A stretch of DNA of 64,000 nucleotides from the NCBI GenBank assembly GCA_947458545.1, contig CANGYH010000003.1, positions 1 to 64,000 on the forward strand, in the 5' to 3' direction. Of this stretch, positions 7,214-32,314 are shown piece by piece. A program made the translations under genes and the position numbers. Positions within the stretch are counted from its first letter, which is position 1, and each line of letters starts with the position of its first letter. The notes below the pieces were generated by a model, which did no database searches, had not been told where the DNA came from, and saw only the letters and a program-made list of their open reading frames with translations. The DNA comes from Cytophagaceae bacterium (GTDB taxonomy: Bacteria > Bacteroidota > Bacteroidia > Cytophagales > Flexibacteraceae).

Positions 7214-7386
7214 ACCTCACGGCTTTAGCCTGGGGTGAACATGGCCTCCCTGGCTTTGCGCACCCCCGCGCCCTCCGGAGGCTGCAAGGTCTGGCGCCCT
7301 GGCCTAAACGCGAGGCGCAGCCTCGCCAGAGCGCGAGACAATGGCAAAGCCATTGCACAGATGAAGGGGGCACAGCCCTTGCACAG
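7214..7386 (-). repeat. REP-like repeat, copy A
   Basis: The segment 7262-7386 on the minus strand is homologous to copy B (20789-20910) and partly to copy C (29514-29594). It contains hairpins of the form CAAnGGC-TTT-GCCnTTG and GCGAGGC-TGC-GCCTCGC, each followed by the same spacer words (GTGCTCTGG, TTTTAGGCCAGGGCG). Just upstream, 7214-7232 holds another palindrome, GGC-TTTA-GCC with TGGGGTGAACA, whose relatives occur at 21121 and 21148. The region lies between the prophage end and the thiolase gene and has no convincing gene. Confidence 0.7.
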
Positions 7387-20788: not shown

Positions 20789-20910
20789 CTGTGCAAGGGT
20801 TGTGCCCCCAACTTCTGTGCAAGGGCTTTGCCCTTGTCACGTGCTCTGGCGAGGCTGCGCCTCGCTTTTAGGCCAGGGCGATAGACCTGGCAGCCTGCGG
20901 AAGGTGCCCA
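20789..20910 (+). repeat. REP-like repeat, copy B
   Basis: Homologous to copy A (7262-7386, opposite strand) and copy C (29514-29594). It holds CAAGGGC-TTT-GCCCTTG and GCGAGGC-TGC-GCCTCGC hairpins separated by the shared word GTGCTCTGG, then the extension TTTTAGGCCAGGGCG and AGCCTGCGG also found in copy A. It begins the 560-base noncoding interval 20770-21329. Confidence 0.75.
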
Positions 20911-21036: not shown

Positions 21037-21301
21037 GCAGGGCTGGAGCCCTGCCAGCGAGGGTTACGAGGGCTGGAGCCCTCGAACAGCATCCTCAGGA
21101 CGCCGAAGGCTCATAGCGTTCGGCTTTAGCCGCCGCCTTAGCAGTAGCCCCAGGTTTCTAACCTGGGGTGAACACGACGAAGCCTGCCTTGCGTAATGGC
21201 CATGACCCGCATCCTGACCTATCCGCCCCTGATTGACGTATGCTTATGGGAGGCCGACGGGAGTCGGCCAGCAAGGCATCCTTAGACTGGAGTCTAAGGA
21301 T
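21037..21301. repeat. Cluster of palindromes with conserved GGA loop and different stems
   Basis: Four perfect hairpins share the loop TGGA or GGGA but have unrelated stems: 21037-21054 (stem GCAGGGC), 21067-21084 (CGAGGGC), 21252-21269 (GGCCGAC) and 21278-21301 (ATCCTTAGAC). Two more hairpins with other loops, at 21121-21132 (CGGC, loop TTTA) and 21148-21168 (CCCCAGGTT, loop TCT), lie among them. No gene is supported in 20770-21329. Confidence 0.8.
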
Positions 21302-21315
21302 AGCGAGGCGAATGC

Positions 21316-21342: not shown

Positions 21343-22073
21343 CTTCCCTCTGGGCATTTGGGTTTGGCCAGCGTGGGGAAGCGCCCCGTGAAATAGCTGA
21401 AAAACAGCACCGCAAACACAAAAGAGAAAATGACGTGCACCACCGTGATGCCTTGGGCCAGCGGGGTTTGTGGGGTAATGTCGCCATAGCCTACGGTGGC
21501 AGAGGTTACCATGCTGAAGTAGAACGCCGTGACGGGCAGGGCCAGGTTCTCGCCCTCGGCGCAGAGGAAGGTGCCGGGTATGGCCACCGAGAGGGTTTTG
21601 TAGATGCTGGCGAAGGTCAGGTTTAGCTCGACGTAGTTGAGCAGGATGAGCAGGATGCTGCGCCGCACCACGATCGTCTGGTTGTGCTGGTCTGGCAAAA
21701 AAATGAGCGAGAGGATGTACACCACCGTCTCTACCGACAGCACGATGGGCACCGAGAGCCAGGCCGGGTTGTAGCTGTACCACAAGAAACCGGCACAGAT
21801 GCCCACCTTCAGCAGCACGTACATGTCGGTGGCAAGGTCTCGGCGCTGCTTGCCGTAGCGGCCCCAGAAGTGGCGCCACCACAGGCCAGGCGTTACAAAC
21901 GGAAGGGCCACGAGCAGCAGCCGCAGCAAGCGCTCTACGCCGAAGTCGTTGTTGTTTTTGTTGCGCCAAACACGCCAGAAGCGCAAACGCTGCATCTTAA
22001 GCTCAGGCGGCACGTGGACATACTGCTCGGTATGGCCCAGTAAGAGCAGTTGCAAGAAGCGGGAGATGCCCAT
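21330..22073 (-). CDS. Two-TM-pore potassium channel family protein
   Basis: A 247-residue membrane protein of the voltage-gated-like channel superfamily. The pore loop SATVGYGDITPQTPLAQ carries the K+ selectivity filter GYGD, followed by the last transmembrane helix VVHVIFSFVFAVLFF. Several hydrophobic segments precede it (about residues 60-150). The short cytoplasmic tail ends in IKN, encoded by the heptamer array. No ligand-binding domain is attached. It is divergent from the gene at 22142. Confidence 0.85.
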   Translation of the reverse strand: MGISRFLQLLLLGHTEQYVHVPPELKMQRLRFWRVWRNKNNNDFGVERLLRLLLVALPFVTPGLWWRHFWGRYGKQRRDLATDMYVLLKVGICAGFLWYSYNPAWLSVPIVLSVETVVYILSLIFLPDQHNQTIVVRRSILLILLNYVELNLTFASIYKTLSVAIPGTFLCAEGENLALPVTAFYFSMVTSATVGYGDITPQTPLAQGITVVHVIFSFVFAVLFFSYFTGRFPTLAKPKCPEGRIKN

Positions 22074-22141
22074 GGCAAGATGTTTGCTTTGTGGTTAAAT
22101 GCAAGCGCTGCCTCCGTAGCGCCCCGTGCAATTTCTACCTG

Positions 22142-22597
22142 ATGACACCCCTCTTCAAAAAACTGCACTATAAGGGCCAAAGCCCCATCTGCATTCTGAA
22201 CGCTCCGGCAGACCTGGCCCCACTGTGGGACGCTATGGCCCCCTTTGCCACCCTGGTGCCGGGCTTGCCGCCTGAGGGGCCAGTGACGTACGCCCTGGCC
22301 TTCGCCACCACCCTGGCAGATGTAGAGCGCCTGACGGCCCAACTGGCCCCCCGCCTGGAGGGCGATGCCACCCTTTGGTTTTGCTACCCCAAAGCCAGCA
22401 GCAAGCGCTACCGCTGCGCGTTTAACCGAGACACCGGCTGGGCCGCCCTCGGCGCGGCAGGCTTTGAGCCCGTGAGCCAGGTGGCCCTGGATGATGACTG
22501 GAGCGCGCTGCGGTTCCGCCGCGTGGCCTACATTGCCATGATGACGCGTGGCTTCGCCATGACGGAAGAGGGCAAGCAGAAGGCAGGCTTGGGCTAA
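22142..22597 (+). CDS. Conserved protein of unknown function
   Basis: A 151-residue soluble protein ending in a block with DDDWSALRFRRV and MTRGF that I recognise as a conserved Bacteroidota family without assigned reaction (similar to DUF3052-like annotations). FCYPKASSKRYRC precedes it. ATG 22142 (MTPLFKKLHYKG) is chosen over an upstream in-frame GTG at 22091. It converges with the DUF4256-like gene seven bases downstream. Confidence 0.6.
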   Translation: MTPLFKKLHYKGQSPICILNAPADLAPLWDAMAPFATLVPGLPPEGPVTYALAFATTLADVERLTAQLAPRLEGDATLWFCYPKASSKRYRCAFNRDTGWAALGAAGFEPVSQVALDDDWSALRFRRVAYIAMMTRGFAMTEEGKQKAGLG

Positions 22598-22603
22598 ACG
22601 CCC

Positions 22604-23128
22604 CTAAAGCGCCAACAACGCCCTGAACCCCCGCGCCGCATAGTAGCTCTGCACCCCGTTGTGGTAGATAAAGACGGTGCCGTAGCGATAGTCTCCAAAC
22701 AGGGCACCGCCCAGGGCGCGGATGGGCTGTGGTGTAAGCAGCCAACTGGAGGTTTTCTGATCTACCGGCCCCAGGCTTTGCAGTTGGCGGTATTGGGCCT
22801 CCGTCAGCAAGGTGAGGCCGTGGGCTTCGCACAGGCCGTGGGCGCTGCCGGCGGGTGGTGCGTCTTTGCGGCTGAGGCGGGCGGGCTCGTCGTAGCAGAG
22901 GCTGCGGCGGCCGGTGGGGCTCTCGGGGGCGCAGTCTATGAATTGCAGGGTGCCGGTGGCCGGGTCAGGCACGGCGTCGGGTTGGCCGCCGGTGGCTTCC
23001 ATCCAGGCCAGGGCCTCCAGGGCGGCGGGGGTTAGGCGGGCGGCCACTTCGGCCCAGGCCAGGCCGGGGTGCCGGTGCGGGTGCTGGGCAAAGCGGGCCT
23101 CCAGCACAGGGAGGATGGGGTGGGGCAT
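22604..23128 (-). CDS. DUF4256 family protein
   Basis: A 174-residue protein that fits the DUF4256 pattern throughout: RHPGLAW near the start, MEATGGQPDAV, CAPESPTGRRSLCYDE, LLTEAQYRQLQ, QKTSSWLLTPQPIRALGG and the C-terminal YHNGVQSYYAARGFR. The two Cys and the RRS/SYYA blocks are conserved in the family. No biochemical role is known. Length is typical. Confidence 0.82.
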   Translation of the reverse strand: MPHPILPVLEARFAQHPHRHPGLAWAEVAARLTPAALEALAWMEATGGQPDAVPDPATGTLQFIDCAPESPTGRRSLCYDEPARLSRKDAPPAGSAHGLCEAHGLTLLTEAQYRQLQSLGPVDQKTSSWLLTPQPIRALGGALFGDYRYGTVFIYHNGVQSYYAARGFRALLAL

Positions 23129-23220
23129 GGGGGCAAGTTAGCGGGGGGGGCAATAATTGGAAACATGCGCAATGGCTGTGCGTGCATTGCATATGGGGCT
23201 TACCATCCCCGCCACAAGAC

Positions 23221-23228
23221 TACATTTG
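23221..23228 (+). promoter_or_regulatory. -7 box (TACATTTG) of restriction-modification gene
   Basis: TACATTTG lies 25 bases upstream of ATG 23254 and downstream of earlier in-frame start candidates, so it decides the start in favour of MDLTAIRD. Confidence 0.6.
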
Positions 23229-23253
23229 CCTGCCTGCCCTGGCCCCCGTTTGT

Positions 23254-26200
23254 ATGGACCTTACCGCTATCCGAGACTATCACGCTACCGTAGACCAGAT
23301 TATTCGCCACGGAGGCTCGCGCAACGAAACCACCGTGCGATCGGCCTTTATCCGCCTCATAAACCGGTATGCACAGCCCAAGGGTCTGGTGCTGGTGGAG
23401 GAGCTGGCTTACAAAACCAAAACGGGCCGCAGCGTGAACCCAGACGGCACCCTGAAGGACAAGCTGCGCCAGGATTGGGGCTACTACGAGGCCAAAGACT
23501 CTAAAGACGACCTGCCCACCGAGGTAGCCAAGAAGTTTGCGGCCGGCTATCCCCAAGACAACATCCTGTTTGAAGACAGCCAGCAGGCTTTCCTCTACCA
23601 GCAGGGCGTGCTCACGATGCGCTGCGAATTGACCGACGAACTGGCACTGGCGGCACTGCTGAACACCTTTGTATCGTTTGAGCGGCCGGAGGTGAAGACC
23701 TTCCGCGAGGCGTTGCAGCACTTTAGTGCCGATGTGCCCCAGGTGACGGACACCCTGCGAACCCTGATCGCCGAGCAGGAGGCGCCGCAGGCCAACCCGC
23801 GCTTCATCCATGCCCGCGATGCGTTTTGGGAGCTGTGTAAGGAGTCCATAAACCCGGCCATTACGCTGGAGGATGTGCGCGAGATGATGATCCAGCACGT
23901 GCTGACGGCAGACATCTTCAATACCGTCTTTGACGAGCCGCACTTCCACCGCGAGAACAACGTGGCCAAGGAGCTCGAGGGCGTGGTAGGCACCTTCTTT
24001 ACCGGCGACGTGCGCCGCGATACACTCGGGCGCATCCAGCACTACTACCAGACCATCAACGCGGCGGCGGCGCAGATTGCCGACCACCATGAGAAGCAGC
24101 GGTTTTTGAAGGTGCTCTACGAGACGTTTTACAAGAGCTACAACCCCAAGGCCGCAGACCGACTCGGCGTGGTCTATACGCCCAACGAGATCGTCCGCTT
24201 TATGGTGGAGGGCACCGACTGGTTGCTGGAAAAGCACTTTGGCCGCCGGCTGGAGGACAAAGGGGTGGAGATACTGGACCCCGCCACCGGCACGGGCACC
24301 TACATCTGCGAGATCATCGACTACCTGGGGCAGACGGAGGCCGGCCGCAAGAAGCTGCCTTACAAATACGCTGAGGAGCTGCACGCCAACGAGGTGGCCA
24401 TTCTGCCCTACTACATCGCCAACCTCAACATAGAGTTTACCTACAAGCAGTGCGTGGGCGAGTACCGCGAGTTTAAAAACCTCTGCTTTGTGGATACGCT
24501 GGACAATGTGGACTTCGACTTCGTAGGCAAGCAAAAGGACCTGTTTGGCAGCGTAAGCGCCGAAAATGCCGAGCGCATACGCCGGCAAAACAAGCGGAAA
24601 ATCAGCGTGATTATCGGGAATCCGCCGTATAATGCCAAACAAGAGAATTATAATTATCAGAATGCTAACCGGGGCTATAAGCATGTGGATAAGCGCATTA
24701 AAGAAACGTTTATCAAACATGGCACGGCCCAGAATCAGATTGTGGTGTACGATATGTACACCCGTTTTTACCGCTGGGCCATGGATAGGCTGGACGACAA
24801 GCAGGGCGTTATTGCTTTTATTACTAACCGCAGCTTTATTGATGGAAGAGCCTTTGACGGCTTTCGAAAGGTTATAGAGCAGGACTTTCAATATGCGTAT
24901 ATTATAGATACGCAATCAGATGTACGAGCCAATCCAAAAATTAGTGGGACAGGGCATAATGTTTTTGGCATACAGACTGGGGTAGCTATAATGTTTTTAG
25001 TGAAAGCTCCTTCATACAACTCGAATAATAATTGTAGAATAGAATATACACAATTGGATGATTTTCTACCAAGGTCGGAAAAAATATCTTGGTTTGGAAA
25101 TAATAGGCTATCTAAAACAGTAACAAGTTTAATTGAAAGTAATAAGAAAAGGGATTGGATAAAACAATCAGATGGGGAATGGGAAAAATTTATCCCGATT
25201 GCAAGTCAGGAGGCAAAGAAGGTGGGAGTAAACGCGGTTTTCTCCCTCTTCTCAAGAGGAGTTGCAACACAACGAGATGAATGGGTGTATGACGAAAATA
25301 CAGATAAACTAGGCAATAAGATCAATTACTTCATTGATACATATAATCGCGCTGTAGACGGCAGTGGTAAAATTGATAACGATATAAAATGGGATAGAGA
25401 ATTGATGAGTTATTTAAAAGCAGGAATAACGAAGACACTTGAACCAGCAAACCTAATTTCTTCGATGTTTAGGCCATATGTCAAAAAATACATGTACTAT
25501 GATAAGCACCTTAACGGTATGACCTATTTGTGGAAGCAAATAGGTCTTAATAACACAATTATTCAATTGAATGGCATTGGAATGGAAGGCAAGGCGTTTG
25601 GCGCTATTGGTTTGTACGGAATGGCTGATGTGCAGAACATGCCAAACGGCCAATGCCTCCCCCTCTATCGCTACGACAAGGACGGCAACCGGTATGATAA
25701 CATTACCGACTGGGCCCTTGAGCAGTTTGAAAAAGCATATGGCCGCGAAGGGGCCTTTGTAAAGCGCGAGAAAACGCCGGAGCAATGGGAAGCCTTGAAA
25801 AAGAGCTTTGTGGCCAATGCGGAAGAGCAACTGGGCCGCAAAGCCACATGGGAGGAGCTGGTAAACCACCCGGATTTCGAGATCGAGGCCATCTACCTGG
25901 GGTCCGGTGGTGAGCCGATGGAGGGTGGATTCGAGCTCACCAAGCTCGACATCTTCCACTACGTCTATGCGGTGCTGCACGACCCAGTGTATCGGGAGAA
26001 ATACGCCCTTAACCTGAAGCGGGAGTTTCCGCGCATACCGTTCTACCCCGGCTTTCAGCAATGGGCCGCCTGGGGCGCTTACCTGATGTACATCCATATC
26101 AACTACGAAACGGCCAAGCCCTATGCCTTGCGTGAAGTAACCCTGGCCCAGGCTGACCCCGATAACCCCGAGCGGGATAAACTGCTGGCCAAGGCAAAGC

Positions 26201-26526
26201 TGACGGCAGACAAGGTAGCCGGCACCATTACGCTAGACGGCTTCACCCGCTTGGAAGGCATACCTCCCGAGGCATGGGACTATAAGCTGGGCAACCGCAG
26301 CGCCCTGGAGTGGGTGCTAGACCAATACAAAGAGAAGACCCCCAAAGACCCCACCATCCGCGAGAAGTTCAACACCTACCGCTTTGCCGATTACAAATCC
26401 CACGTCATCGGCCTTCTACGCCGCGTCTGCCGCGTCAGCGCAGAGACCCAGGCCATCATAGCCCAAATGCAATCCCTACCTGCTGATGCTCGCGAGGCGT
26501 ATGCCGCCTCGGCAGAAGCTGCGTAA
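23254..26526 (+). CDS. Single-chain restriction enzyme/adenine methyltransferase (type IIG/ISP-like)
   Basis: A 1090-residue bifunctional restriction-modification protein. The N terminus has a PD-(D/E)xK nuclease: Pro63-Asp64 and Glu79-Ala-Lys81 in YYEAKD. The methyltransferase follows, with motif I DPATGTGTYICE at about 340 and motif IV NPPYN at about 456, so it makes N6-methyladenine. The C-terminal block around YLGSGGEPMEGGFELTKLDI fits the specificity domain of type ISP enzymes. No helicase domain is present, unlike LlaBIII. The section at about 24640-25640 is conspicuously A+T-rich against its flanks, consistent with an exchanged target-recognition region. It formerly abutted the helicase gene. 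Confidence 0.85.
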   Translation: MDLTAIRDYHATVDQIIRHGGSRNETTVRSAFIRLINRYAQPKGLVLVEELAYKTKTGRSVNPDGTLKDKLRQDWGYYEAKDSKDDLPTEVAKKFAAGYPQDNILFEDSQQAFLYQQGVLTMRCELTDELALAALLNTFVSFERPEVKTFREALQHFSADVPQVTDTLRTLIAEQEAPQANPRFIHARDAFWELCKESINPAITLEDVREMMIQHVLTADIFNTVFDEPHFHRENNVAKELEGVVGTFFTGDVRRDTLGRIQHYYQTINAAAAQIADHHEKQRFLKVLYETFYKSYNPKAADRLGVVYTPNEIVRFMVEGTDWLLEKHFGRRLEDKGVEILDPATGTGTYICEIIDYLGQTEAGRKKLPYKYAEELHANEVAILPYYIANLNIEFTYKQCVGEYREFKNLCFVDTLDNVDFDFVGKQKDLFGSVSAENAERIRRQNKRKISVIIGNPPYNAKQENYNYQNANRGYKHVDKRIKETFIKHGTAQNQIVVYDMYTRFYRWAMDRLDDKQGVIAFITNRSFIDGRAFDGFRKVIEQDFQYAYIIDTQSDVRANPKISGTGHNVFGIQTGVAIMFLVKAPSYNSNNNCRIEYTQLDDFLPRSEKISWFGNNRLSKTVTSLIESNKKRDWIKQSDGEWEKFIPIASQEAKKVGVNAVFSLFSRGVATQRDEWVYDENTDKLGNKINYFIDTYNRAVDGSGKIDNDIKWDRELMSYLKAGITKTLEPANLISSMFRPYVKKYMYYDKHLNGMTYLWKQIGLNNTIIQLNGIGMEGKAFGAIGLYGMADVQNMPNGQCLPLYRYDKDGNRYDNITDWALEQFEKAYGREGAFVKREKTPEQWEALKKSFVANAEEQLGRKATWEELVNHPDFEIEAIYLGSGGEPMEGGFELTKLDIFHYVYAVLHDPVYREKYALNLKREFPRIPFYPGFQQWAAWGAYLMYIHINYETAKPYALREVTLAQADPDNPERDKLLAKAKLTADKVAGTITLDGFTRLEGIPPEAWDYKLGNRSALEWVLDQYKEKTPKDPTIREKFNTYRFADYKSHVIGLLRRVCRVSAETQAIIAQMQSLPADAREAYAASAEAA

Positions 26527-26529
26527 GCC

Positions 26530-26567
26530 CTCCACATGCACCCCCTCTACCAAACGCTGCGGCAGGC
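26530..26567 (+). repeat. 38-bp direct repeat, left copy (duplicated helicase start)
   Basis: This copy matches 27376-27413 at 37 of 38 bases. It includes the first 32 coding bases of the helicase gene (ATGCACCCCCTCTACC onward) and stops where the inserted element begins. It is therefore an orphan 5' fragment of the downstream gene. Confidence 0.9.
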
Positions 26568-27337
26568 CCCCGCTAAGCAAAGTCTCTGACTTTGCTTTAT
26601 GTAGCTGCAAGTCTCTGACTTGCATTCTTCACCTCGCTAACCAAAGTCTCTGACTTGCATTTTCCTTCCACCAAGCGCCCCATCCATCCGTTTGCAGACA
26701 CCCCCTACGTACCGCGCTTATTCCATCGTCAAAGGCTCAGAGATACACTTTTTGACCCTTACGGTGGTGGATTGGCTCGATGTGTTTGTGCGGCCCGAGT
26801 TTGCGCGCCATGTGCTGGAGAGCCTTGCCTATTGTATTACGCATAAGGGTCTACAGCTCCACGCCTGGGTGTTGATGACCAGCCACCTGCACCTGATGGC
26901 CTCGCCACAACAGGGCCATGACCTCTCGGCCATTCTGCGGGACTTCAAGAAGTTTACCGCCCGCCAGATCTTGACCGACCTGACGCAAGCCCGTGTGAAC
27001 GAGAGCCGCGCCCAGGCTTTTTTGAACGCCTTTGGCTGGCACGGAATTCATAACCCCAACAACGAGCAATACCAGCTCTGGCAGGGCGACAACCACGCTG
27101 TTCATGTCCATAGCCGCGACTTTGCCGAGCAGAAGCTGGGCTACATCCATCAAAACCCAGTGGTGGTCGGCTGGGTAGAGGAGCCTTGGCACTACCGCTA
27201 TAGCTCGGCGGTGGATTATATGACCGAGCGGAAGGGGTTGCTGCCGGTTTGTTTGTTGTAGGGGTGATGTGCATGGACGCAAGTCGGAGACTTGCAGCTA
27301 ACCGCTAAGCAAAGTCAGAGACTTTGCTTAGCGGGGG
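26567..27337. mobile_element. REP-bounded element carrying a RAYT transposase
   Basis: A 771-bp unit with perfect 31-bp inverted terminal repeats (26567-26597 and 27307-27337). Each terminus is itself a palindrome, AAGCAAAGTC-TCT-GACTTTGCTT. A second pair of related hairpins (26608-26627 and about 27287-27306, stem GCAAGTC) lies just inside. One gene, a REP-associated tyrosine transposase, is enclosed. The unit plus a 38-base tail (27338-27375) is flanked by a duplicated 38-bp sequence from the helicase gene, so it looks like a recent insertion. Confidence 0.8.
26692..27261 (+). CDS. REP-associated tyrosine transposase (RAYT, Y1/HUH family)
   Basis: A 189-residue single-stranded-DNA transposase of the Y1 group related to IS200/IS605 TnpA. 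The metal-binding HUH motif is THLHLM-like (TSHLHLMA, about residues 64-71). The C-terminal portion KLGYIHQNPVVVGWVEEP and YRYSSAVDY is the standard RAYT block that includes the conserved Tyr candidates. RAYTs nick at REP palindromes, and such palindromes bracket this gene on both sides. The start appears to be TTG at 26692, since no ATG or GTG lies nearby; expression may be low. Confidence 0.88.
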   Translation: MQTPPTYRAYSIVKGSEIHFLTLTVVDWLDVFVRPEFARHVLESLAYCITHKGLQLHAWVLMTSHLHLMASPQQGHDLSAILRDFKKFTARQILTDLTQARVNESRAQAFLNAFGWHGIHNPNNEQYQLWQGDNHAVHVHSRDFAEQKLGYIHQNPVVVGWVEEPWHYRYSSAVDYMTERKGLLPVCLL

Positions 27338-27375
27338 GGTATATGTCTGCTTAGTTAGGTGGCATCTTTAGGCTC

Positions 27376-27413
27376 CTCAACATGCACCCCCTCTACCAAA
27401 CGCTGCGGCAGGC
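27376..27413 (+). repeat. 38-bp direct repeat, right copy (intact helicase start)
   Basis: Right partner of 26530-26567; it contains the functional ATG (27382) and first codons of the helicase gene. The single mismatch lies just before the ATG. Confidence 0.9.
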
Positions 27414-29439
27414 GCAAGACAGGCTCCTCTTTGGGCCCGATGTGGAGCCAGACGAGGCCGATGGCTGGTTGCAGGCCGTGGGGCAGACGCTGGCTCTGTG
27501 CGGGCTGGCCGTGGCGGGGCGGCCCCTGCCACAGGGGGCGTTTGCGGCCCACCCCCAGGCCGACCCCAAGCTGCTGGCCGAGGGGGTAGAGATTGCCCTG
27601 CGGGCCCTGCGCGGCAAGCTGGCCGCCGAGCAAGGGGGGCAGCCGTGGCGGGCCGAGTCTGCCCTGCTGCCGGCGCTGGGCATCTGGCAAGACGCCCTGG
27701 CCCGCGCCTTTCAGAAGCCTGACGAAGACCCGGCGTTTCCGCCCGGCTATGCCGCAGACCCGGCCGTGCGGGCCCTGCTAGACCGCATCTTGCGGCAGCG
27801 GGCCAACTACTTCGTGACGGGCAAGGCGGGCACGGGCAAGAGCACGTTTCTGCGCTACCTCAAAAAGTACGCGCCCCGGGCTACGGTGGTGGTGGCCCCC
27901 AGTGGGGTGGCGGCGCTCAACGTGGGCGGGCAGACGATCCACAGCTTCTTTAGGCTGCCGCTGCGGCCCATGCTGCCCGACGACCAGGAGCCCAAGCGCC
28001 TGCAGAGCGAGCAGTTCCGCCGCCTTTACGACCGGCTGGAGCTGCTGATTATAGACGAAATCTCGATGGTGCGGGCCGATGTGCTGGAGGGCATCTCGCG
28101 GGGGTTGCAGCGCAACCGGGGCAACAGCAAGCCCTTCGGCGGGGTGCAGGTGGTGGTGTTTGGAGACTGCTTCCAGCTCGGCCCCGTGCTGCGCGCCCAA
28201 GAGGCCGAGGCCTACCAGGGGTTCTATGCCGGGCCGTGGTTCTTTCAGGCCCCGGTGTGGGCGCGGGCGCGGTTCCAGACGGTGGAGCTGACGCGGGTGT
28301 TCCGCCAGGCAGACCCTGCCTTTGTGGAGCTGCTCAACCTGGTGCGCACCGGCGAGGCTGGCCCGGCAGACCTGGCCCGCCTCAACGCCCGTACCCAGGC
28401 CGAGCCCGACCCGCTCGGCCCGGAGCCCATGCACCTGACCACGCGCAACAAACAGGCTGAAGACATCAACCTGGCCCGGCTGCGCGCCCTGCCCGGGCAG
28501 GTGCAGCCGCTGGATGCCGTGGTAGAGGGCGAGTTTCCGCAAAGCGCCTACCCGACGGACTTTCGGCTGCAACTGAAGGTGGGGGCGCGGGTCATCTTCT
28601 TGCGCAACGACATGGCCGGCGGCCGCTGGCGCAATGGCACCCTGGCCACCGTAGAGGCCATAGACCCCGAGGTGCTGCAAGTGCGCTTGCCCGACGGCAA
28701 CCTGGCCGAGGTGCGGCCCGAGCTGTGGGAAAACCTTCGCTACCGCTACGACCGTGCCCAGCGCAACATCGCCAGCGAGCGGCTGGGCGGGTTCACGCAG
28801 TTTCCGCTGCGGCTGGCCTGGGCCATCACCATCCACAAAAGCCAGGGCATGACGCTGGACCTGGCCCAGGTAGATCTGGGCCGCGCGGGCAGCTTTGCCC
28901 ACGGGCAGGCCTACGTGGCCCTCAGCCGCGTCCGCAGCCTGGAGGGGCTTTTTCTGACCGAACCCCTGCGCCCCACAGACCTGCTGCTGGAGCCCGAGGT
29001 GCTGGCGTTCTACAAGCAGGCCATTGCCCAGGCCACCCACACGGGGGAGGCCGGGCCGGATGTGCTAGACTTCTTTCTGCGCCGCCCGGGCTTCACGCTG
29101 GCCCTTATAGAGCGGCACCAGCTCCTCCCGCCCGACACGCTAGAGCACTACGGCCCGGCCCTGGCCACGCTAGAGGCACTCCCCCCCGCAGAGCCTGAGG
29201 CTGCCCCGCGCAGCTTCGCGACCCTCTCTATGGCTGAGCTTGCCACGCTGCTGCCAGAAGAAGACCCCCTCATGGCGGCAGACCAGGCCCTGCAACTTGC
29301 CCAGCTCGCCGCCAACCCAACTCTGTGGGCGCGGACGTTGCAACCGCTGTTGACGCCCCTGGTGCACGCCTTCGTTACCGAGCAGGCCCACATGCACCAG
29401 CTGGAGCAGGATAGACAGGCAGAGGGGGAGGGGAGTTAA
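27382..29439 (+). CDS. PIF1/RecD2-like superfamily 1 helicase
   Basis: A 685-residue helicase. A roughly 130-residue N-terminal region precedes the motor: Walker A GKAGTGKST at about 148, motif Ia VVVAPSGVAALNVGGQT, Walker B LLIIDEISM at about 224, FGDCFQLGPV, and motif V/VI AWAITIHKSQGMTLD with YVALSRVRSLEG near the end, all typical of the PIF1 group. Such enzymes unwind forked or G-quadruplex DNA 5' to 3'. The C-terminal 150 residues carry no recognised domain. Before the RAYT insertion it lay about nine bases after the restriction-modification gene. Confidence 0.9.
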   Translation: MHPLYQTLRQAQDRLLFGPDVEPDEADGWLQAVGQTLALCGLAVAGRPLPQGAFAAHPQADPKLLAEGVEIALRALRGKLAAEQGGQPWRAESALLPALGIWQDALARAFQKPDEDPAFPPGYAADPAVRALLDRILRQRANYFVTGKAGTGKSTFLRYLKKYAPRATVVVAPSGVAALNVGGQTIHSFFRLPLRPMLPDDQEPKRLQSEQFRRLYDRLELLIIDEISMVRADVLEGISRGLQRNRGNSKPFGGVQVVVFGDCFQLGPVLRAQEAEAYQGFYAGPWFFQAPVWARARFQTVELTRVFRQADPAFVELLNLVRTGEAGPADLARLNARTQAEPDPLGPEPMHLTTRNKQAEDINLARLRALPGQVQPLDAVVEGEFPQSAYPTDFRLQLKVGARVIFLRNDMAGGRWRNGTLATVEAIDPEVLQVRLPDGNLAEVRPELWENLRYRYDRAQRNIASERLGGFTQFPLRLAWAITIHKSQGMTLDLAQVDLGRAGSFAHGQAYVALSRVRSLEGLFLTEPLRPTDLLLEPEVLAFYKQAIAQATHTGEAGPDVLDFFLRRPGFTLALIERHQLLPPDTLEHYGPALATLEALPPAEPEAAPRSFATLSMAELATLLPEEDPLMAADQALQLAQLAANPTLWARTLQPLLTPLVHAFVTEQAHMHQLEQDRQAEGEGS

Positions 29440-29500
29440 AAATTAAAAATTAAAAATTAAAAATTAAAAATTAAAAATTAAAAATTAAAAATTAAAAATT
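29436..29500 (+). repeat. Heptamer TTAAAAA tandem array, about 9 units
   Basis: Nine perfect copies of TTAAAAA plus TT, beginning within the last codon and stop of the helicase. Same unit and same position relative to a gene end as the array at 21316-21342; both are next to a REP-like cluster. Confidence 0.85.
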
Positions 29501-29513
29501 CTTCTACCCATAG

Positions 29514-29594
29514 CTGTGCAAGGGATTTGACCCCTTTTACTGTGCAAGGGCTGTGCCCTTGTCAGGTGCTCTGGCGAGGCTGTGCCTCGCTTTT
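29514..29594 (+). repeat. REP-like repeat, copy C
   Basis: Contains CAAGGGC-TGT-GCCCTTG, the spacer GTGCTCTGG and GCGAGGC-TGT-GCCTCGC followed by CTTTTGG, matching copy B and the complement of copy A. It lacks the AGCCTGCGG extension. The two hairpin stems are preserved while loop bases differ between copies. Confidence 0.75.
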
Positions 29595-29604
29595 GGGGGG
29601 TGGG

Positions 29605-30726
29605 CTATACGGTTACGCCTTCGTAAATGCCCTCTACGGTTTCGGCGCAGATGTGGTCTACCACGGCCTGGAGGTTCTCGCCGCTTTCGTAGTAGGTGCG
29701 CAATTGCCTGTCGGCCCCGGTGCCGTGGTGGAGCATGTGCTGGATGTAGTTGATCTCGCGGCGGCTGTCTAGGCCATCTACTACGTCATCTACAAAGTCT
29801 AGCAGCTCATAGACCAGGCTGCGGCACTCCACCTCCTCTTGCTTGCCGAAGTCGATCAGCTTGCCGTCTAGCCCGTAGCGGGCGGCGCGCCATTTGTTCT
29901 CGTTGATGAGGGCACGGCGGTAGAGGCGGAAGTTGAGGTTCTGCTGCATCAGCTTGTGGATCTTGGCCACTACGGCCTGCATGAGGGCAGCCAGGGCCAG
30001 GGTCTCCTCTACGCGCATGGGCACGTCGCAAATGCGGAACTCAATCGTCTCGAAGAAGGGGTGCAGGCGGATGTCCCACCAGATCTTCTTGCCGTTGTCT
30101 ATGCAGCCTGTTTTGATGAGCAGGTTGATATAGTTGTCGTACTCGCCGGCAGAAGCAAAGAAATCGGGTATGCCCGTGCGCGGAAACTTGTCGAACACCT
30201 TGGTGCGGAAGCTCTTAAAGCCCGTGTTGCGGCCCTCCCAAAAGGGCGAGTTGGTGCTGAGGGCAAAGATGTGCGGCAAGAAATACCGGCAGGCGTTCAT
30301 GATCTGCAACCCGGTCTCGCGGTCTGGTATGCCCACGTGCACGTGCAGGCCGAAGATGAGGTTGGCCCGGGCCGTATCCTGCAGCTCCTCTACGATGTGG
30401 TGGTAGCGGGGATGGTCTGTAATGGGCTGGTTTTGCCAGAGCGAGAAGGGGTGCGTGCCCGCAGCGGCAATCTTGAGGCCGCTTTGGTCTGCCAGCTCGG
30501 CAATGGTGCGGCGCAGGAAGGTTACCTCGCGCCGGGCGTCGTGCATGTTGTGGCAGATGTTGGTGCCCACCTCTACCACGGCCTGGTGCATTTCGGCCTT
30601 TACCTGCTCTTTGAGCAAGATGCGCCCGCCCTCGATGATCTGCTCCATATGGCTGCGCAGCTCGCGGGTGTGCGGGTCAATCACCTGAAACTCCTCTTCT
30701 ATGCCGATGGTGTAGGTGTACTTCAT
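29605..30726 (-). CDS. YbdK-type carboxylate-amine ligase (glutamate-cysteine ligase 2 family)
   Basis: A 373-residue ATP-grasp-like GCS2 enzyme. The N terminus IGIEEEFQVID carries the metal- and substrate-binding Glu run; GLHVHVGIPD and NSPFWEGRNTGFKSFR follow, and RICDVPMRVEETLALAALMQ is the family C-terminal block. YbdK has weak gamma-glutamylcysteine ligase activity in vitro and its true role is uncertain. The gene stands alone, ending next to REP copy C. Confidence 0.88.
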   Translation of the reverse strand: MKYTYTIGIEEEFQVIDPHTRELRSHMEQIIEGGRILLKEQVKAEMHQAVVEVGTNICHNMHDARREVTFLRRTIAELADQSGLKIAAAGTHPFSLWQNQPITDHPRYHHIVEELQDTARANLIFGLHVHVGIPDRETGLQIMNACRYFLPHIFALSTNSPFWEGRNTGFKSFRTKVFDKFPRTGIPDFFASAGEYDNYINLLIKTGCIDNGKKIWWDIRLHPFFETIEFRICDVPMRVEETLALAALMQAVVAKIHKLMQQNLNFRLYRRALINENKWRAARYGLDGKLIDFGKQEEVECRSLVYELLDFVDDVVDGLDSRREINYIQHMLHHGTGADRQLRTYYESGENLQAVVDHICAETVEGIYEGVTV

Positions 30727-30898
30727 AAGAATAATGATGGGGTTGAGGCGCCGGCGGCGCGTACGGAGGCGGGCTAGAATCCGGTACCAATATAGGACAC
30801 AGGCTGCACCTATCGGGGTTTGGCTTCGCAGCTGCGTTTGGAAAAAGCAAGCGGGTAGGGGGTATTGTTCAAAAAAACGGAGCCAACCCCTGGCAGCC

Positions 30899-32314
30899 TT
30901 ATTCTTTTACAAACTGCCGAGCCACGGCCCCGGCCTGCAGACGGTACACCCCGGGCGGCAGGCCGCTCACGTCTATGGTGCTGCCCGGGCCCAACTGCCC
31001 TGCCAATACCTGTTTGCCCAGCACCGTATATATGGCATAAGCCGCACCTATACCCCTGCCGGCAATGGCCAGTTGGGTGTTTGCCGGGTTGGGAGCCAGT
31101 TGTAACTGCCCTTGGGCAGTGGGCGCCACCCGGGTTGTAGCATAAAAGAAAACCAAGCGATAGTACCCGCCCATGCTGGTCTCTACCACTTGCTCTGCCA
31201 GCCTGTTTTGGCCATCGTATGTGTTGGCAAAGCGTTCAAACCCTGCCATGTACACCTGGCCCGCCAGGTTGTATTGGGCATAGTTCACGTCTAGCCGTTG
31301 GCCTTGGTCGTCGTAGGTAATGCTGGTGGTGTCAGAGGTAATCCAGCGGCCGTTTGCCAGTAGCTGCTGCTGGCTGTTGGCGCGCCGGCCTACCTGGTTG
31401 CCCAGGCAACGCCAGGGTGTAAGGCCGGGCAGCGAGTCGCGCCGAACCTGGCCGCTGCCGCGCAGCAGCATCGGGTCTGGCTCTCGGCCTTGGTCGTGGG
31501 CGCGCTCCACTGCGTCTAAAGGCCGGGGCCGATCATAACCGAAGGCCCATACCAGGCTGTCGGTTGTACTTATAAAAATGTAGGTGCCGTGGTTGGTCTG
31601 GTCTTCGTCCCAGCGTGATTGGCCCGTCAGGCGGCCGGCAGCATCGTAGCGGTGGGCCAGCTTCACCCGCCACACCTGCCCCGATGCGCGAATCGTTTGT
31701 GCCAGCGTATCTACCCAGCCCGTGGGGGTATAGGTAAAGCGCACGGTAGATCCCACATTATTAACGTTGAAGACGGATTGGATTTCCGTTATCCGGCCGG
31801 CACTGTCTTGGGTGTAGAAATACCGGGTAGAGTCTATTTCTGTACCGCCAGAAATCGTTTTCTTTTTGGCAAGCCACCCGTTGGGCCGGTAGGTATATAC
31901 GATCAGGTCGCTCATGGCCGGGTCGTTGATGTTGAGGATGAAGCGTGTGGCAAAGCGCCCATCTGGGTTGTAGGTGTACTCCGTTGCCTCTTGCAGCGTC
32001 CACCGGCCGGGTGTGCCGGTGTAGCGCTCCATGCGGATGGGCCTGTTGGCAAACAGGCTGGCTGCGCTGCTAAGGGGAGGCTCGGGCCGCGCCCTGCCTT
32101 CTTCTGCCCCAGACGGCAAATAGTCGTAAGCACATGGCATGGGCCAGTACGCCTGCGCATACCCCAGCCCGGGCAGCATAAAGGCTTGGGCCAGCAAAAG
32201 CAAGAGGAGACCAAAGCCACAGAGGCTGCCAGATTTCGGTATCTGGCAAGGTGCCAAGTAGAGCCGGTAAAGACAGTTTAGAAGCGCGCTTTCCATACGG
32301 ATTTGGATTTGCAT
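30899..32314 (-). CDS. Secreted protein with T9SS sorting tail
   Basis: About 471 residues. A signal peptide (GLLLLLLAQAFMLPGLGYAQA) is followed by a body with repeated Tyr/Asp phrases such as YTYNPDGRFA, YTYRPNGWL, FTYTPTGW and HRYDAAGRLTG, a degenerate YD/RHS-like repeat pattern. The last 75 residues (LAPNPANTQL through GVYRLQAG) form a type A C-terminal sorting domain for the type IX system, so the protein is exported to the cell surface or medium. ATG 32314 is chosen; 32365 and 32296 are alternatives. The partner or ligand is unknown. Confidence 0.8.
   Translation of the reverse strand: MQIQIRMESALLNCLYRLYLAPCQIPKSGSLCGFGLLLLLLAQAFMLPGLGYAQAYWPMPCAYDYLPSGAEEGRARPEPPLSSAASLFANRPIRMERYTGTPGRWTLQEATEYTYNPDGRFATRFILNINDPAMSDLIVYTYRPNGWLAKKKTISGGTEIDSTRYFYTQDSAGRITEIQSVFNVNNVGSTVRFTYTPTGWVDTLAQTIRASGQVWRVKLAHRYDAAGRLTGQSRWDEDQTNHGTYIFISTTDSLVWAFGYDRPRPLDAVERAHDQGREPDPMLLRGSGQVRRDSLPGLTPWRCLGNQVGRRANSQQQLLANGRWITSDTTSITYDDQGQRLDVNYAQYNLAGQVYMAGFERFANTYDGQNRLAEQVVETSMGGYYRLVFFYATTRVAPTAQGQLQLAPNPANTQLAIAGRGIGAAYAIYTVLGKQVLAGQLGPGSTIDVSGLPPGVYRLQAGAVARQFVKE

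What the first reader, a model, noticed from the sequence alone, without database searches (positions are those of the whole stretch)
26530..27413. REP-bounded RAYT element inserted with a 38-bp target duplication
A 771-bp unit with perfect 31-bp inverted palindromic ends encloses a REP-associated tyrosine transposase. It is flanked by a 37/38 match duplicating the first codons of the helicase gene, while an orphan copy of that start remains beside the restriction gene. RAYTs are generally regarded as domesticated and immobile, and IS200/IS605 relatives do not duplicate targets. This looks like a footprint of whole-unit movement, or of an unusual REP-REP recombination.
Basis: partly seen in the sequence, partly recalled or inferred. 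Interest (0 to 1): 0.85.

Follow-up and report, generated by a model that had tools for sequence, protein, structure and literature searches.

The report
Transposase-like unit beside duplicated gene start
A palindrome-bounded REP-associated transposase gene sits between two copies of the first 39 bases of a helicase gene; the duplication is real and looks recent, but no other such unit tested in this genome shows one, so it is probably a one-off repair or recombination scar and not the element's normal insertion signature.

Summary
A 38/39 direct repeat (26529-26567, 27375-27413) brackets a unit with perfect 31-nt inverted palindromic ends enclosing an apparently intact RAYT gene (26692-27261). 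The left repeat abuts the left end. The right repeat lies 37 bp from the right end, and those 37 bp gave no second match in the genome.

The search found six RAYT genes in the genome (the others 46-60% identical to this one), each with its own inverted-repeat ends, and a family of short inverted hairpin pairs (REPINs) matching this one. Of 17 units compared over 1-kb flanks, only this one has a long flanking repeat. So the repeat is not the family's habitual target duplication.

The repeat copies are more alike (97%) than the closest pair of REPIN cores (84%), which favours recent arrival of the unit here or a recent local copying event.

Best reading: a one-off insertion of the RAYT unit plus 37 bp at codon 11 of the helicase gene, with the gene start duplicated by repair or recombination. 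Removing 846 bp leaves an open helicase frame. No empty-site relative was found, so order of events and mechanism are inferred. Ordinary RAYT biology with one odd junction.

The parts
23182..26526 (+). Type ISP restriction-modification gene (single polypeptide; ORF as listed, its start not checked); stop codon TAA 26524-26526, 9 nt before the orphan ATG
   Evidence: Pfam Type_ISP_C 275.7 bits, ISP_coupler, Eco57I, N6_Mtase; ORF; stop
26529..26567 (+). Left (orphan) copy of the 39-bp repeat: helicase start with 7 nt of leader; its ATG at 26536 opens a 17-codon frame that stops at 26587-26589 inside the left palindrome
26567..26597 (+). Left outer palindrome (outer REP hairpin) with C-run; left arm of the perfect 31-nt inverted repeat
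   Evidence: DNA fold of 26567-26665, z -6.6
26602..26661 (+). Left inner hairpin (26602-26623) and a third, partial REP hairpin (26634-26661)
26692..27261 (+). RAYT (TnpAREP-type Y1 HUH) gene, 189 aa, TTG start; H65, H67 and Y151 kept
   Evidence: ORF, NF047646 90 bits, Y1_Tnp, alignment A1
27279..27300 (-). Right inner hairpin, inverse of 26602-26623 (95%)
27302..27337 (-). Right outer palindrome with G-run; 27307-27337 is the right arm of the 31-nt inverted repeat
   Evidence: fold of 27270-27340, z -9.1
27338..27374 (.). 37-nt spacer between the right palindrome and the right repeat copy; no second match in the genome
27375..27413 (+). Right (in-gene) copy of the 39-bp repeat: start of the helicase gene
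27382..29439 (+). Pif1-like helicase gene, 685 aa
   Evidence: ORF; Pfam PIF1 102 bits

Best explanation
A block made of the REP-bounded RAYT unit plus 37 bp of foreign flank (26568-27374) was inserted once, recently, at codon 11 of a helicase gene that used to start 9 nt behind the restriction gene. The insertion was accompanied by a 39-bp duplication that rebuilt a complete helicase start on the far side, so the helicase was not broken. The duplication was made by the cell's repair or recombination machinery (staggered break with fill-in, template switch, or joining with a sister copy), not by the RAYT as a regular target duplication. The join exactly at the left palindrome suggests, without proving, that RAYT cleavage or a REP hairpin supplied the left end. 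Shown: both repeats, the unit, its being the exception in the set tested, and the open frame left when 846 bp are taken out. Inferred: that the left copy marks the old gene start, that it was a single event, its order, and the mechanism.
For: 39-bp repeat, 38/39; its 23-nt start occurs only at these two places. The left copy ends on the first base of the left palindrome. The helicase frame is complete with the insert, and the deletion product is also one open frame with only the terminal stop. The 9 nt between restriction stop and orphan ATG are operon-like (inference). The repeat copies are 97% identical against 84% for the closest of 66 pairs of REPIN cores, gaps counted as differences. HUH and Tyr residues and the ends are intact. 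No long flanking repeat at the other 5 RAYT units and 11 REPIN places over 1-kb flanks, nor in 13 further rows, mostly of other REP families, over 120-nt flanks.
Against: No empty site was found. The 37-nt spacer has no donor copy in this genome, so origin by movement within the genome is not shown. Junction microhomology is at most a base or two, judged by eye. One substitution in 39 dates the event only loosely, and REPIN cores may drift faster than this stretch. It could have been two events (rival 1).
Confidence: 0.48

Rival explanations
1. Rival 1. The RAYT unit has long sat between the restriction gene and the helicase, its palindrome directly behind the restriction stop codon. Only the 39-bp left copy is new: a templated patch copied from the helicase start across 807 bp during replication or repair stalled at the REP hairpins.
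For: The age of the repeat dates the duplication, not the unit. The left copy begins 2 nt after the restriction stop and ends at the palindrome, as a patch placed between stop and REP would. A TAA also lies just before the palindrome at C4:118646 (its frame was not checked). The end hairpins fold strongly (z -6.6 and -9.1).
Against: Needs two template switches with almost no microhomology. Does not explain the operon-like 9-nt spacing of stop and orphan ATG except by chance.
Confidence: 0.22
2. Rival 2. Exchange between strains: an allele with RAYT unit plus spacer upstream of the helicase entered a recipient with restriction gene and helicase side by side, homologously inside the helicase and illegitimately at the left end (homology-facilitated illegitimate recombination), or as a circle by single crossover; the repeat is two alleles of one start.
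For: Duplications of a homologous segment beside inserted DNA, put down to single crossover with end-truncated circles, were seen by PCR in 56 of 60 E. coli clones, 109-950 bp in 14 sequenced (PMC3240628, passages). Explains the absence of a second copy of the spacer and the 1/39 difference.
Against: Needs a donor strain with another intergenic region; none was available to look at. The cited duplications are longer, and the same passages say that true homology-facilitated events usually come with a deletion.
Confidence: 0.2
3. Rival 3. The RAYT moved the unit and made a long target duplication as its regular product, so RAYT units transpose whole.
For: Perfect ends, complete gene, left end abuts the repeat; recent event.
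Against: 0 of 5 other RAYT units and 0 of 11 window-type REPIN places have such a repeat over 1-kb flanks. The right copy is 37 bp off the right end. The other five RAYT matches in the genome are only 48-60% identical, none a second copy of this one. [quoted passage not shown] That IS200/IS605 elements insert without target duplication is recalled, from no call.
Confidence: 0.07
4. Rival 4. Assembly or sequencing artefact.
For: Draft genome in 9 contigs; reads not available.
Against: The two copies differ at one base; the unit and the spacer are single copy.
Confidence: 0.03

Closest known systems
TnpAREP/TnpAY1 subclass 2.6 (Bacteroidetes), PMC6006769
   Same: HxH motif, WQ, YIHQNP, size near 180 aa, palindromes at both ends with copies elsewhere in the genome
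   Different: SHLH in place of the signature NH[LIV]H; one 39-bp flanking duplication
TIRtron/TIRYT (RAYT with long terminal inverted repeats), PMC3733652
   Same: RAYT gene bounded by long, partly self-complementary inverted repeats, with a moderately abundant repeat family
   Different: The consensus GGGGWSAS motif was not examined here
REPIN (inverted REP pair), PMC3116915
   Same: Window-type hairpin pairs in inverted orientation, mostly about 135-180 bp, at 12 places
   Different: Two hairpins per end; no GTAG foot common to the copies, judged by eye (GTAG stands once, at the left inner hairpin of the window unit)
Insertion with long target duplication of restriction-modification genes (Nobusato et al. 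2000, known here only through passages of PMC3031569)
   Same: A restriction gene and a long duplication lie side by side
   Different: The repeat copies flank the RAYT unit, not the restriction gene

Membership tests
RAYT / TnpAREP (subclass 2.6) | HUH motif and catalytic Tyr of Y1 transposases | tested here: met
   H65, H67 and Y151 invariant in 7 of 7 aligned proteins; L068 was dropped before this count because its span held stops
RAYT / TnpAREP (subclass 2.6) | Family model above curated cutoff | tested here: met
   NF047646 90 bits, cutoff 80
RAYT / TnpAREP (subclass 2.6) | Signature NH[LIV]H, WQ, YIH[QN]NP | tested here: inconclusive
   WQ130-131 and YIHQNP met; SHLH instead of NHLH (signature from PMC6006769)
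RAYT / TnpAREP (subclass 2.6) | Flanking palindromes with copies elsewhere in the genome | tested here: met
   42 places with the REP core against 3 for the control pattern (5 of the 42 are in the unit itself); 52 DNA matches to the unit, 40 of 48 candidates scored
RAYT / TnpAREP (subclass 2.6) | Position in the family tree | not tested
   No tree was built
IS200/IS605 insertion sequence | IS200 transposase model above cutoff | tested here: not met
   NF033573 21.6 bits, cutoff 55
IS200/IS605 insertion sequence | Several near-identical transposase copies | tested here: not met
   Six RAYT matches, the other five 48-60% identical to this one
Transposon with target-site duplication | Direct repeat abuts both ends | tested here: not met
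   37 nt between right end and right copy
Transposon with target-site duplication | Duplication of this kind at other copies | tested here: not met
   0 of 16 other units over 1-kb flanks
Transposon with target-site duplication | Empty site with one copy of the target | not testable with these tools
   No same-genus genome among the 39 drawn; no empty site found
REPIN | Inverted pair of REP hairpins as a repeated unit | tested here: met

The most novel reading that the evidence does not exclude
RAYT units of the Bacteroidota type can move whole, by one-ended cleavage at the left REP with read-through of the right end, the carried flank being rejoined upstream so that a long stretch of target is duplicated and the invaded gene is rebuilt.
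Probability: 0.12. Interest if true: 0.75.

Novelty: new member of a known kind. Interest (0 to 1): 0.36.

Why it matters
How RAYT genes reach new places is open: REPs and REPINs spread, but the cognate gene is thought to stay put (PMC6006769, passage). A dated whole-unit arrival would be a rare testable case. This junction gives an exact prediction: an 846-bp deletion between the repeats would leave a restriction gene-helicase junction with an intact helicase frame. The negative result, that no other unit tested in the genome carries such a repeat, is equally useful because it takes away the simple target-duplication reading.

Tried and rejected
Empty site: helicase and RAYT as queries in genome contigs and viral contigs; the first 213 residues of the helicase and the restriction protein in 390 genomes of the order, own included. 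The loci returned had flanks of about 1.5 kb; of the 38 helicase and 29 restriction loci from other genomes, none held both genes (which also included those). More genomes matched than loci were requested, so this is a partial look. In the rows listed, homologues match the helicase from residue 101 on at the earliest, so its first codons have no counterpart to compare.

Donor of the 37-nt spacer: none in the genome or elsewhere in the window.

Tandem duplication or deletion of a second helicase copy: one helicase match in the own genome and no further direct repeat of 26 nt or more in 21500-31000 except REP sequence, so rejected. Restriction-gene insertion with long target duplication: the copies do not flank that gene, so rejected.

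Target duplications in other REP units: 13 of 14 rows were computed (C9:92035 was skipped at an edge) and three of them (loci L191, L145, L151) were read in the wrong orientation; these three were redone. In one search two rows other than the window unit exceed their shuffle maximum (C7_93 score 13, C7_458 score 11) and one equals it (C7_95, 10); all three are REP sequence in the neighbourhood, judged by eye. In one search one row (C3:120987) scores 10 against 9, with a 10-nt stretch that recurs in REP palindromes, by eye. Two places, a single REP (C3:215921) and C4:118646, were not taken into the 1-kb comparison.

Nested filled and empty sites inside the genome gave clean insertions without duplication, but of a different 124-bp element, so they do not test the RAYT itself.

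Full report
What is there. The window unit at 26567-27337 has a perfect 31-nt inverted repeat at its ends, a second inverted hairpin inside each end (26602-26623, 27279-27300; 95%) and a third partial hairpin on the left. It encloses a 189-aa RAYT with a TTG start that passes the NCBIfam RAYT cutoff and keeps the HxH pair and the tyrosine. The 39-bp repeat lies at 26529-26567 and 27375-27413 with one difference at 26533. The left copy begins 2 nt after the stop codon of a Type ISP restriction-modification gene and ends on the first base of the left palindrome. The right copy is the start of a Pif1-like helicase ORF. Between the right palindrome and the right copy lie 37 nt with no second match in the 3.23-Mb genome. 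The orphan ATG opens a 17-codon frame that stops inside the left palindrome.

Setting in the genome. Six RAYT matches are present, the other five 48-60% identical to this one over the matched part (46-60% in the alignment). Each of the other five has inverted-repeat ends of 57-95 nt made of hairpins of different sequence. The window-type REP core occurs at 42 places, 5 of them in this unit, against 3 for the control pattern. Twelve places with an inverted pair of this type were used for the core comparison, most of them 135-180 bp long. Ends of the other families matched in 13 (L050 type), 35 (L052 type; 40 of 45 candidates scored), 40 (L053 type; 40 of 58 candidates scored, so a lower bound) and 3 places (L054 type), the RAYT units' own ends included. 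The sixth family (L051 type) was not counted.

Is the repeat a target duplication? In one search, 25 rows of REP-bounded units, some of them alternative bounds of one place, were compared flank against flank (120 nt). The window unit scored 36 (shuffle maximum 10). Two other rows exceeded their shuffle maximum (13 and 11) and one equalled it (10), by eye because of neighbouring REP sequence. With 1-kb flanks, 17 units (6 RAYT, 11 REPIN places) gave 36 for the window unit and 9-13 for the other 16 (no shuffle control in that part). Thirteen further rows, mostly of other REP families, gave scores of 6-10 (three rows replaced; one row is a RAYT unit already counted and one is nested in another). 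Two RAYT units from named records (L067 Chitinophagaceae MAG, L068 Bacteroidetes MAG) also have inverted ends; L067:4200-6500 has no direct repeat of 16 nt or more, and L068:4200-6500 has four two-copy families of 16-23 nt at 74-88%, one of them the palindrome itself. Repeats shorter than about 10 nt could not be told from chance by these tests. The 39-bp repeat is therefore an exception, and the 37-nt gap on the right also speaks against a regular target duplication.

Age. The repeat is 97% identical, while the most similar pair of REPIN cores of this family is 84% identical (66 pairs, gaps counted as differences, shuffle maximum 56%). If both drift at similar rates, the duplication is younger than the REPIN spread, hence younger than the arrival of this RAYT family in the lineage. 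This favours a recent relocation of the unit or a recent local copying event. One substitution in 39 gives a wide error.

Mechanism. The preferred order is: restriction gene and helicase adjacent (9 nt between stop and ATG); insertion of 26568-27374 at codon 11; the 39-bp start present on both sides after repair. Selection for a working helicase would keep only insertions that rebuild the start. Taking out 846 bp leaves a single open helicase frame. The clean join at the left palindrome is what RAYT cleavage or a hairpin end would give, but this is inference. Rivals are a later 39-bp templated patch beside a long-resident unit, and exchange between strains. In E. coli, duplications beside inserted DNA, put down to single crossover with end-truncated circles, were the common product in one study (PMC3240628, passages read).

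What could not be settled. None of the 39 genomes drawn as relatives (own included) is of the same genus. The two genome-contig scans gave no helicase relative and eight RAYT relatives of 22-56% identity. In 390 genomes of the order, own included, the first 213 residues of the helicase matched in 180 and the restriction protein in 93, the helicase matches lying beyond residue 100 in the rows listed. None of the 38 helicase and 29 restriction loci held from other genomes carried both genes; most matching genomes were not fetched. The empty-site test remains open.

Literature seen. PMC6006769: passages and two sections. PMC3733652: passages and one section. PMC3116915, PMC8266576, PMC3031569 and PMC3240628: passages only. 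Bertels et al. 2017 and Nobusato et al. 2000 were seen only as citations. The listings (20 of 22, 3 of 3, 17 of 17, 30 of 6,694 and 10 of 493 papers) showed no title or abstract start that describes a RAYT unit with a long flanking duplication; this is not proof that none exists.

Noticed in passing
L176:2097-2220; L180:1276-1400; L132:1762-1886 (same place as L196:1654-1778): A 124-125-bp element with ATGGTC/GACCAT ends sits at the centre of a REP palindrome (by eye) in 3 of 3 full-length places in the loci held, without target duplication where filled and empty copies could be compared (L176, L180); partial internal matches of 31-62 nt occur in further loci.
   Followed up: partly
L179, L177, L188 (C7:28820-29590, C4:114297-114931, C2:103537-104096): REP pairs of one family enclose palindromes of other families, including the L051 type, in a nested, near-symmetrical order that recurs; read by eye; none of the six RAYT matches lies there.
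   Followed up: partly
L053:1340-1409 and 2050-2119: Upstream of one RAYT lies an inverted, 83% matching copy of its own 3' end between REP ends, as if a REPIN had formed from a RAYT unit by internal loss.
   Followed up: no
window 7309-7363, 20815-20865, 21252-21304: REP ends of two other RAYT families (L053 type, L053 type, L050 type) elsewhere in the window.
   Followed up: no
L059:2704-3964 (C4:119903-121163): Two window-type REPINs about 900 bp apart enclose a 149-aa ORF, like a small composite unit; no flanking repeat above chance.
   Followed up: no
window 24500-25749: G+C falls to 0.39-0.41 inside the restriction-modification gene against 0.54-0.70 around it, suggesting a mosaic or acquired segment.
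   Followed up: no
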